From positions 612,982 through 676,981 of the forward strand of contig NZ_WRXM01000002.1 in NCBI RefSeq assembly GCF_010119205.1: a DNA stretch of 64,000 nucleotides, read 5' to 3'. Positions within the stretch are counted from its first letter, which is position 1; every line of letters starts with the position of its first letter. This document shows positions 15,117 through 17,961 of the stretch, piece after piece. Below the pieces are notes generated by a model. That model was given only the letters and a program-made list of their open reading frames with translations. It made no database searches and was not told where the DNA came from. Position numbers and translations under genes: made by a program. This stretch comes from Haloarcula limicola. Its GTDB lineage: Archaea > Halobacteriota > Halobacteria > Halobacteriales > Haloarculaceae.

Positions 15117-15662
15117 TCACCAGGGCTCGTTCTTCAGCCCGAGCGCGTAGGCGATGCCGTTCGTCAGCACGTGTAACAGCGGCGTGAGCAGGAGGATCGC
15201 CACCAACACGGGGACGGTGAACGTCGCGCCGAACCACGACGGCGCGAGGACGAGCGCACAGGCGAGCGCGCCGACCACGAAGTCCAACTGGTCGAGCCCC
15301 GGGAAAGCGGCCCCGCGCTCGCGACCGCTCCGGCGCTTGAGAAACGACGCTCCGACGTCCCCGAGCATCGCCCCGAACGCCAGTCCGAGGCCCGCGCGCA
15401 GCGGAAACGTCGGGAGCGGGTGGCCGACGAAGTCGCTCGCCGCGGGCGCGAGCACCGAGAGCAGTATCGCCAGCGTCAGTCCCGCGAGCGTGCCCGCGAG
15501 CGTCCCGCGCCACGTCTTGCCGTCGCCGAGCAGTCGGCTGTCGCCCATCGTCCGTCCGCCGTCGATCGGCCGGCCCCCGCCGGCGAGCACCGCCGCGTTG
15601 TTGGGCACGTACGCGGGCAGCATCACCCACACCGCCGTCACAACCACACCGAAGACGTCCAT
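15117..15662 (-). CDS. carS: CDP-archaeol synthase
   Basis: 181 residues from the Met of [21 protein letters not shown] (15662). Four or five membrane helices are seen. Conserved polar segments between them are [19 protein letters not shown] (about 18-36), [14 protein letters not shown] (about 44-57) and [15 protein letters not shown] (about 97-111), matching the CDP-alcohol-type CarS family. It forms CDP-archaeol from CTP and unsaturated archaetidic acid, the branch point of archaeal membrane lipid synthesis. A TATA-like GGTTAAG on the minus strand (15686-15692) lies 25-31 bp before the start and immediately abuts the end of tnpB. Confidence 0.93.
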
Positions 15663-15685
15663 GTCCGCGCCGTCTCGGCCCGGCG

Positions 15686-15692
15686 TCTTAAC
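15686..15692 (-). promoter_or_regulatory. Likely carS TATA box next to the tnpB end
   Basis: The minus-strand sequence GGTTAAG lies 25-31 bp before the carS ATG. It is the only AT-rich stretch between carS and the tnpB stop codon at 15698-15700. If the transposon end is just past the terminal hairpin of tnpB, the bases that would serve as the guide of its RNA overlap this box. Confidence 0.45.
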
Positions 15693-15697
15693 CCGTG

Positions 15698-15735
15698 TCA
15701 TCTACCGACGACTGAAGTCGTGGGCTTGTCCGTGG
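15698..15735 (-). ncRNA. Predicted 3' end of the TnpB guide (omega) RNA scaffold
   Basis: Read on the minus strand, the end of tnpB contains CCCACGACTTCAGTCGTCGG (about 15706-15725), a near-perfect hairpin of the kind that ends haloarchaeal IS1341-type elements. In this family the RNA overlaps the 3' end of tnpB and continues past the element into its guide. The scaffold start upstream cannot be defined by eye; only the terminal hairpin is visible. The guide would be the bases just below 15698. Confidence 0.5.
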
Positions 15736-16954
15736 ACTCCCGGTCTGACGACGAACCGTCGTAGGCGGTGTAATCGCCGTTCCCGTTCACCATCCCAGAC
15801 TTGAGGGCGAGATGACCGTCGCCCAACCCATCGGGACGTTTGCCCGGTGGTAAAGTTAGCAACTTGAGACCGATGTTCTTCGACGCGTTGTAGTCGCCGT
15901 CGACCGAGTAGCCACACTCGTTGCACTCGAACCAGCCAGTCTTGCTATCACGGTTCGTGCTGGACTGATGCTCGCACTTCGAGCAGGTCTGACTCGTAAA
16001 CGCAGGCGGAATCTCCTCCACGCGGATACCGTACCCGCTGGCTTTGTACGCGAGCATTTCTTGAAGTTCGCGGAACGCCCAGTTGTGCATCTGACGCTTT
16101 ATTTGGTCGTTCCCGTTGTCCATTCGCTCGCGGATGTGGGTCAAGCGTTCGACGGCGATGTACGAACAATCGTGGGCGTCGGCTTCCTCCACGATGCGCC
16201 GAGAGATAGTGTGCAGGCGATTCAGCACGAAGCGGTTTTCTCGCCCCGACAGTCGCCGGAGTACCTGCTTGGCGGAGCGAGTGCCTTTGTGCTGAAGGCT
16301 TCGACGCACGCGGAAGTAGTGGTTCTGGCCCCACAGCAGTTCGCCACCATCGTAGAACGACCCCGTACTCGTCACGGCGACGTTCTTCAGGTTCAAGTCC
16401 ACGCCCAGTACCGTGTCACCGTCGCGTTCTTCGACCTCTTTTTTGATGACGATGTGGAGGTAGAACGCATCCTCGTCCTCGCGGTAGTGGAGCGTTCCCA
16501 TTCGTTTTTCGTAGTCGTCGTCATCGAGGTAGGACTTCTGGTAGTCTCCGAGAACGTAGTCAACGCCAACCCTGCCGTTGATGGTGGAAAGGGTGGCAGA
16601 CCTGTCCTTGATGGTCAGCGTCCGTTTGTCGTAGACGGCTGACGGCTCGTTGAATCGTGGGAGTGGTCGGCTGTTACCCTTCTTCCAGTCTGCAACTGTA
16701 GATTTCATCGCTTCGATGGCTTTCGAGTAGGCGCGAACGCAGAGGTTCGCGGGCAGGTCTGTCTCGTCTCGTAGGTCGTGGTACACTTCGTCGTGTATGG
16801 TGGACTTGTTGAGGATGAGATAGCCGTCGTCGTTTCTACCGTGTTGGACGGTGTAGTTGCAGGCGTGGTTGAACTGCCCGATAGTCTGATGGAGGTCGCT
16901 CTGTCGGTCTTCGGGAACCGAGAGTTTGACCAGAACGGTTCGTTTGACCTCCAT
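15698..16954 (-). CDS. tnpB: TnpB RNA-guided nuclease (IS200/IS605, IS1341-type), no tnpA
   Basis: 418 residues from the Met of [16 protein letters not shown] (16954). RuvC-like nuclease parts are in order: Asp in [12 protein letters not shown] (about 183-194), Glu in [12 protein letters not shown] (about 265-276) and Asp in [12 protein letters not shown] (about 351-362). A zinc ribbon, CSKC (324-327) and CNEC (344-347), sits between the last two. All catalytic residues are intact. TnpB enzymes cut DNA guided by an RNA from the element's own 3' end. No TnpA transposase is nearby. A minus-strand TATA-like TTTATAAAAC (16979-16988) lies at leaderless distance. It is upstream of carS on the same strand. 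Confidence 0.93.
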
Positions 16955-17124
16955 CTGTAACCTCACGTACGAAGTAGTGTTTTATAAATTCTACAACGGG
17001 CGTGGGGGAGTCGAATTGCTATCGCTCGTGGTTGGTTTCGAGCTTTGTGACTCGTACCGAGCGCGTGTCACGACGATAGCGCGACGCGGCAACCTTCTTG
17101 CCGTCCGGGTGGCAACTATCGGGC

Positions 17125-17961
17125 ATGTTGCCGCCACTGGCACGTCGGTTCGTCGCCGGGGAGTCGGCCGCCGCGGCCCTCGAACACGCCCGCCGGACGA
17201 ACGAGCGGAACGTCGGCGTCATCTGCAACCGGTTGGGCGAACACTACCGCGAGCGCGCTCCCGCGGCGGCCGACACCGCCGCCTACGAGCGGCTCGTCGC
17301 CGACATCGGCGCGAGCGACCTCCGGGCCTGTATCTCCGTGAAGCCCTCCCAGCTCGGGCTGCTCGTCGACGAGACGTTCTTCCGCGAGAACCTCGCGCGC
17401 GTCGTCGAGAGCGCCGCGGAACACGGCGTCTTCGTCTGGATGGACATGGAGGACCACACGACGACCGACGCCGCCATCGACGCCTTCGAGACGCAGGCCG
17501 AGGCACACGAGGGCGGCGTCGGCCTCTGTCTCCAGTCGAACCTCCGGCGGACGGCCGACGACCTCGAGCGGCTCGCGGACGTGCCGGGAAAGCTCCGGCT
17601 GGTCAAGGGCGCGTACGACCCGCCCGCGGACGTGGCCTACCAGCGCAAAGCCGAGGTGAACGAGGCCTACCGGCGGGACCTGGAGTTCCTGTTCCGCGAG
17701 CGCACCGGCGGGATCGCCGTCGGCAGCCACGACCCCGAGATGCTGACGCTGGCGGCGGACCTCCACAGCGAGTACGAGACGCCCTACGAGGTGCAGATGC
17801 TGATGGGCGTGCGGACCGACGCCCAGTACGAGCTCGCCGACGTCTGTGACGTCTGGCAGTACGCCCCCTTCGGCAGCGAGTGGCCCGCGTACTTCTGGCG
17901 GCGCGTCCTCGAGCGAAAGGAGAACGCGCTGTTCGCGCTTCGCGCGCTCGCCGGCGGCTAG
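17125..17961 (+). CDS. Proline dehydrogenase
   Basis: 278 residues from the ATG at 17125; a TTG at 17098 is in frame but less likely. The monofunctional PRODH TIM-barrel motifs are present: CISVKPSQLG (about 76-85), FVWMDMEDHTTTD (about 113-125), LRLVKGAYDPP (about 165-175), VGSHDPEML (about 211-219), YEVQMLMGVR (about 235-244) and the late WRRVLERKENALFALR, which binds proline. It oxidises L-proline to pyrroline-5-carboxylate using FAD. No pyrroline-5-carboxylate dehydrogenase is adjacent. It runs divergently from tnpB. Confidence 0.92.
   Translation: MLPPLARRFVAGESAAAALEHARRTNERNVGVICNRLGEHYRERAPAAADTAAYERLVADIGASDLRACISVKPSQLGLLVDETFFRENLARVVESAAEHGVFVWMDMEDHTTTDAAIDAFETQAEAHEGGVGLCLQSNLRRTADDLERLADVPGKLRLVKGAYDPPADVAYQRKAEVNEAYRRDLEFLFRERTGGIAVGSHDPEMLTLAADLHSEYETPYEVQMLMGVRTDAQYELADVCDVWQYAPFGSEWPAYFWRRVLERKENALFALRALAGG

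What the first reader, a model, noticed from the sequence alone, without database searches (positions are those of the whole stretch)
15671..15735. TnpB whose predicted guide lies on the carS core promoter
tnpB ends with the hairpin expected at the element's right end. The bases just past it, which would be the guide, are CGGGTTAAGACGCC in the carS promoter (TATA at 15686-15692). The guide would match the site only when the element is absent, or similar promoters elsewhere. An active TnpB could protect the insertion next to an essential lipid gene; an inactive one might repress it. All RuvC residues look intact here.
Basis: partly seen in the sequence, partly recalled or inferred. Interest (0 to 1): 0.6.

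Follow-up and report, generated by a model that had tools for sequence, protein, structure and literature searches.

The report
TnpB element beside carS promoter
A small mobile element in a salt-loving archaeon carries an RNA-guided DNA cutter whose built-in address is the promoter it landed next to, so it should cut only copies of that site that lack the element; this is the usual layout for such elements.

Summary
A Haloarcula-type genome carries a 1,350-bp IS200/IS605 (IS1341-like, tnpB-only) element at 15697-17046, in the 112-bp gap between the divergent carS and proline-dehydrogenase genes. A close relative (Haloarcula amylovorans, carS 94%) keeps the empty site; the joined flanks match it at 109 of 112 bases. 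The right end is ...GATGAC, and the next bases, ACGGGTTAAGACGCC, lie on the carS BRE/TATA region. Relatives of the element show TAM TCAC. The element's own end presents TGAC there, so the resident promoter should not be cut, and the own genome holds no other TAM+guide match. RuvC D/E/D and zinc-finger cysteines are intact, which argues against a TldR-like repressor. New here: the left-end hairpin is missing and no Y1 TnpA was found, so the element looks immobile, although tnpB keeps dN/dS about 0.10-0.15 against close relatives. Gene starts just past the right end are not special (13 of 114 elements, 8 of 99 at left ends, rough ORF rule). Best reading: an ordinary, probably functional but stranded TnpB-ωRNA unit that would cut and re-fill empty carS alleles. 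Activity is untested.

The parts
15697..17046 (-). IS200/IS605 (IS1341-like) element carrying only tnpB, 1,350 bp
   Evidence: Both junctions from the empty site of G002 / Haloarcula amylovorans; joined flanks 109 of 112 identical
15698..16954 (-). tnpB CDS, 418 aa; stop TGA lies inside the TGAC right end
   Evidence: Pfam Cas12f1-like_TNB 1.6e-22, OrfB_IS605 1.3e-8; D186, E269, D354 and C324/327/344/347 conserved
16980..16988 (-). likely tnpB TATA box (TTTATAAAA), about 30 nt upstream of its ATG
   Evidence: read from sequence; inference
16955..17046 (-). shortened left end, 92 nt to the ATG where close relatives have 135-141; left-end hairpin absent
17047..17050 (-). TAM/target TCAC retained in the left flank (GAGTCAC)
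   Evidence: empty site; TCAC in 32 of 33 relatives with an anchored left end
15811..15816 (-). 5' segment GTCATC of the predicted ωRNA, pairs with the terminal GATGAC
   Evidence: 6/6 pairs in 40 of 40 scorable elements with compensatory changes
15705..15724 (-). right-end hairpin CCCACGACTTCAGTCGTCGG with one C.C mismatch
15697..15702 (-). GATGAC element end; TGAC sits where a TAM would be, so the resident site is not a proper target
15677..15696 (-). predicted 20-nt guide ACGGGTTAAGACGCCGGGCC (16-nt form 15681-15696)
   Evidence: bases directly after the element end; rule from PMC8612924 passages; empty relative has one mismatch, position 4
15687..15691 (-). carS TATA-like TTAAG, 25-29 nt upstream of the ATG, inside the guide
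   Evidence: conserved at this spacing in genus carS loci
15117..15662 (-). carS, CDP-archaeol synthase
   Evidence: Pfam CarS-like 8.8e-46; single copy
17125..17961 (+). proline dehydrogenase gene on the other side of the insertion
   Evidence: Pfam Pro_dh 1.7e-23; ATG placed

Best explanation
This is a tnpB-only IS200/IS605-family insertion of a haloarchaeal subfamily with TAM TCAC. [quoted passage not shown] TnpB loaded with it should cut an uninserted carS promoter (GAGTCAC followed by ACGGGTTAAG...), and repair from an inserted chromosome copy would restore the element. It should not cut the resident copy, because TGAC stands in the TAM place. The element itself looks immobile (left-end hairpin gone, no TnpA found), so its only plausible present activity is to hold, or fill in, this one site. 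carS would be transcribed from its own TATA, which is intact. Shown: boundaries, empty site, TAM, covarying ωRNA end, intact active site, no second target in the genome. Inferred: expression, cutting, repair outcome, normal carS expression.
For: Empty site and clean joint without duplication. A second element (L041, 89% identical TnpB) gives the same kind of joint, TTCAC/TCGAA..., in a relative at 83% identity. TAM TCAC in 32 of 33 anchored left ends against 7.4% of 26-nt stretches at large. The terminal GATGAC pairs with GTCATC upstream in 40 of 40 scorable elements, with four compensated pair types. D/E/D and four Cys intact. dN/dS 0.10-0.15 against nine relatives of 89-93% identity. Own genome: the only TAM+guide matches within 3 mismatches are the resident TGAC site and one site with a broken TAM. 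Published basis: guide from the right flank, TAM requirement and repair model (PMC8612924, passages); an archaeal TnpB that does not cut behind its own element-end motif (PMC11043419, passages).
Against: One stem pair of the right-end hairpin is broken. The left end is degraded, so the whole unit may be an expression-dead relic. No RNA data. Purifying selection measured pairwise mostly reflects the mobile family's history; the window-private codons are only 2 synonymous and 2 non-synonymous, too few to prove recent constraint. No empty allele from the same species was available; the relative's site differs at guide position 4.
Confidence: 0.75

Rival explanations
1. Inactive relic: tnpB is no longer expressed or its ωRNA no longer folds; the insertion is a neutral scar upstream of carS.
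For: Left-end hairpin lost, no Y1 TnpA found in the genome, a C.C mismatch in the right-end hairpin, single copy.
Against: Full-length ORF, intact active site, TATA-like box kept, no excess of private amino-acid changes, the terminal ωRNA pairing intact. Mismatches occur in other elements too: L039 and L048 have broken pairs in the same hairpin.
Confidence: 0.2
2. TldR-like repressor: TnpB binds without cutting and lowers carS transcription.
For: The guide covers the core promoter of carS; promoter-targeting TldRs exist (PMC13418256, passages).
Against: RuvC D/E/D intact. The resident promoter has TGAC instead of the TAM TCAC, and no TAM+guide site exists elsewhere in the genome. Occupying its own flank would need TAM-independent binding.
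Confidence: 0.03
3. Cis effect: tnpB transcription or ωRNA processing across the carS promoter alters carS expression without any targeting. This can be true alongside the best explanation.
For: Same strand; tnpB ends 35 nt before the carS ATG, and the predicted ωRNA guide overlaps the promoter.
Against: No expression data; the BRE/TATA stretch is kept apart from the TCAC to TGAC change at its upstream edge.
Confidence: 0.25

Closest known systems
ISDra2 TnpB-reRNA (IS200/IS605, Deinococcus radiodurans; PMC8612924)
   Same: RuvC nuclease; guide taken from the bases after the right end; TAM equals the left-flank target; empty donor site is the target
   Different: TAM TCAC instead of TTGAT; no tnpA; left end truncated; archaeal host; activity untested
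Haloarchaeal IS1341-type elements with sotRNAs/ωRNAs (Halobacterium salinarum; PMC12558985)
   Same: tnpB elements whose 3' end overlaps a structured ωRNA with a right-end hairpin and a pairing that involves the element end
   Different: Not hit by the Rfam models (RF02656/RF02657 per that paper) here: no such match for the window or nine relatives
SisTnpB7 (Sulfolobus islandicus; PMC11043419)
   Same: Archaeal TnpB that needs a TAM and spares its own flank behind the element-end motif
   Different: TAM TTTAA and end motif TTCAC; here TAM TCAC and end TGAC, one base apart
TldR nuclease-dead repressors (PMC13418256)
   Same: Guide directed at a promoter
   Different: Nuclease site intact here; own promoter lacks the TAM; no separate target gene
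TnpB gene drive in multicopy plasmids (PMC11870625, preprint)
   Same: Would favour inserted over empty copies in a multicopy setting
   Different: Here the copies would be those of a polyploid archaeal chromosome; not tested

Membership tests
TnpB (IS200/IS605 RNA-guided nuclease) | OrfB_IS605 / Cas12f1-like_TNB domains | tested here: met
TnpB (IS200/IS605 RNA-guided nuclease) | RuvC D/E/D and CxxC...CxxC zinc finger | tested here: met
   D186, E269 in 42 of 42 aligned proteins; D354 and the four Cys in 40 of 42, two being gaps; alignment to solved TnpB/Cas12f chains
TnpB (IS200/IS605 RNA-guided nuclease) | ωRNA scaffold at the 3' end of tnpB ending at the element boundary | tested here: met
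   Predicted by covariation, 40 of 40 scorable of 44 right ends, from 48 elements; not seen as RNA
TnpB (IS200/IS605 RNA-guided nuclease) | TAM-dependent, RNA-guided DNA cutting | not testable with these tools
   needs an assay
IS200/IS605 element | Insertion 3' of a fixed short target without target duplication | tested here: met
IS200/IS605 element | Subterminal hairpins at both ends | tested here: not met
   right-end hairpin present with one mismatch; left-end hairpin absent in this copy, present in most relatives. So it is filed as a truncated copy descended from such an element, not as a complete one.
IS200/IS605 element | Y1 TnpA in cis or in trans | tested here: not met
   0 matches to PF01797 in the genome, 5 of 14 control genomes positive; tnpB-only elements are a known class (recalled; also PMC11043419 passages), so kinship rests on tnpB and the ends
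TldR repressor | Mutated RuvC active site | tested here: not met
TldR repressor | TAM plus guide match at a host promoter | tested here: not met
   own genome has no TCAC+guide site

The most novel reading that the evidence does not exclude
A stranded tnpB, unable to transpose, acts as a site-specific drive in a polyploid archaeon: it converts empty carS promoters to inserted ones across the many chromosome copies and in incoming DNA. Because the target is the core promoter of a gene needed for membrane lipids, the host can hardly lose or change the site, so the unit is kept without mobility.
Probability: 0.12. Interest if true: 0.6.

Novelty: new member of a known kind. Interest (0 to 1): 0.3.

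Why it matters
It is a clean natural case with both alleles known (inserted, and empty in a close relative), a one-base difference between self (TGAC) and target (TCAC), and no transposase to complicate the reading. That makes it a good test of whether TnpB alone maintains an insertion in polyploid archaeal chromosomes. As a regulatory device for carS there is no support.

Tried and rejected
Rfam search of the element and of nine relatives gave no ωRNA family match, only weak hits below the gathering score that I take as chance. A second carS-associated tnpB was looked for: none in 29 other genus loci (flanks up to 1.5 kb, one locus, L026, cut 29 nt upstream of carS; 2 of 32 genomes gave no locus) and none at the promoter in 80 carS loci of the GTDB r220 set (one distant partial match at the far edge of L101). 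Whether right ends favour promoters: with a rough ORF rule, an outward start within 60 nt at 13 of 114 right ends and 8 of 99 left ends, so no clear preference (128 elements, 12 without a located right end, 2 right flanks and 14 left flanks too short; left ends placed only approximately). Three right ends have the start at 33, 33 and 34 nt (L059, L061, window); too few to claim a rule. Decay test by private codons was inconclusive. Structure prediction was not run, since family and active site were clear by sequence. Literature searches for TnpB with haloarchaea, with polyploid+archaea, with Haloarcula, and with 'transposon-encoded motif' showed in their listings no paper on this element or on a chromosomal drive in archaea; apart from PMC12558985 and PMC11043419, only listings were read for those.

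Full report
What is there. The window lies in a haloarchaeal genome of 3.9 Mb in 7 contigs. On the minus strand tnpB (15698-16954) is followed directly by carS (15117-15662), with proline dehydrogenase on the plus strand beyond the other end. Pfam names the proteins OrfB_IS605/Cas12f1-like_TNB, CarS-like and Pro_dh.

Exact ends. All 32 genomes searched in the genus have carS. Joining the window's two flanks gives 112 bp that match the relative's 112-bp gap at 109 positions, with no duplication or loss. The element is therefore 15697-17046, 1,350 bp. The left flank ends GAGTCAC; the right flank starts ACGGGTTAAGACGCC. Strictly, the window/relative comparison alone leaves a 3-base ambiguity at the joint (ACA); the family's conserved right end TGAC and left flank TCAC settle it.

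Family rules. A search of 293 genomes of the order found tnpB relatives in 278. The 48 elements examined first were the window copy and 47 others, most of them 72-93% identical and four at 44-47%. Of these, 33 had a left-end hairpin that could be anchored without looking at the flank; 32 of the 33 have TCAC just upstream, where 7.4% of 26-nt stretches at large do (13 had no anchor, the window among them, and 2 were too short; one pair, L044 and L150, has identical ends). A second uninserted site was found for element L041: a relative reads TTCAC directly joined to TCGAA at 83% identity over the joined query, and two more distant ones keep GTCAC/TCGAAG. A trial with L039 gave homologues of about 67-74% that were too diverged at the joint to help.

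ωRNA. Of 48 elements 44 had a right end by pattern, and 40 of these had the upstream anchor; in 40 of 40 the last six bases pair fully with a segment about 110 nt or more upstream, in the combinations GTCATC/GATGAC 21, GTCAGC/GCTGAC 10, GTCACC/GGTGAC 4, GTCAAC/GTTGAC 3, and two with a G-U pair. The right-end pattern itself demanded TGAC, so the evidence lies in the second base, which varies and is compensated. The window copy keeps this pairing. Its right-end hairpin has one C.C mismatch; among 37 distinct right ends in the consensus-structure check, 13 including the window have at least one broken pair, though in several of the others that reflects a different middle stem. Rfam found no ωRNA match.

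Self and target. The resident carS promoter follows TGAC; the empty site follows TCAC. In the own genome, TCAC+16 nt of guide with up to three mismatches is found only at the resident site (one mismatch, the TAM base) and at one site with a broken TAM. In 146 family genomes the pattern TGAC+15 nt with up to two mismatches hits only the window and the empty relative, the latter with one TAM difference and one mismatch at guide position 4. Of 28 other genus carS promoters lined up at fixed distance from the ATG, 14 show TCAC and 9 CCAC, the remaining five being other or shifted (L026 dropped as too short; L001 and L002 are the window itself). Apart from the empty relative the best guide match has 4 mismatches. 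An archaeal TnpB has been shown not to cut behind its own element-end motif (PMC11043419, passages), which supports reading TGAC as protective; that TGAC does so here is inference. The same paper reports a relaxed TAM at some positions, so weak recognition of TGAC is not excluded.

State of the element. Left-end hairpin absent: 92 nt from the flank to the tnpB ATG against 135-141 in the closest relatives. No Y1 transposase hit in the genome, while 5 of 14 control genomes respond. One further, distant TnpB-like match (30%) is present. The protein keeps D186, E269, D354 and four zinc-finger cysteines (alignment to solved relatives). Pairwise dN/dS against nine relatives of 89-93% identity is 0.10-0.15, similar to values among other members; private codons are 2 synonymous and 2 non-synonymous. 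So there is no sign of protein decay, but also no proof of recent selection.

Is the promoter position remarkable? With 80 more elements fetched, 116 of 128 had a locatable right end. By a rough ORF rule 41 have an outward gene and 70 an inward one on the right side; an outward start lies within 60 nt in 13 of 114 scorable right ends and 8 of 99 scorable left ends, whose boundary was only approximated. The window's position is thus one of several. No other carS promoter with a tnpB was found.

How it most likely works. [quoted passage not shown] With the left end and TnpA gone, only the holding function is left. In polyploid haloarchaea with efficient gene conversion (PMC8223754, abstract; PMC4056108, search listing) this would act on many chromosome copies; gene drive by TnpB has been reported for plasmids (PMC11870625, abstract and passages). 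All of this is inference for the present element. That carS is essential is taken from general knowledge of archaeal lipid synthesis; no call tested it.

Verdict. Observation confirmed; interpretation partly supported; a new member of a known kind with two unremarked features (lost left end, no transposase).

Noticed in passing
L190, L199, L211, L210, L237, L222, L219 and others, base before the right flank: Elements of a sister subfamily end in TTAC; in 16 of 31 a reverse reading frame of 90 codons or more runs exactly into the TAA that this end supplies (9 and 5 in the other two phases). They may insert at stop codons of neighbouring genes and restore the stop; TGAC-ended elements show no such bias (25 against 22 and 17 of 76).
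   Followed up: partly
L061, right flank; L059, right flank: Two relatives have their right end 33 nt upstream of a start codon, as the window has (34 nt); L061 also shows a TATA-like CTTAGG at the matching place.
   Followed up: no
L034 and L048, flanks: Both elements seem to sit near similar genes that look, from memory only, like a RelE-type toxin-antitoxin family; not tested.
   Followed up: no
window 15687-15703 and carS loci: The carS promoter carries a conserved (T/C)CACAcnGnTTAAG-like block in the genus, while Halorubrum uses TTTATATA at about the same distance, as seen by eye.
   Followed up: partly
element ends: TAM and element end seem to change together between subfamilies (TCAC with TGAC; TCAT or TCAG with TTAC), seen by eye only.
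   Followed up: no
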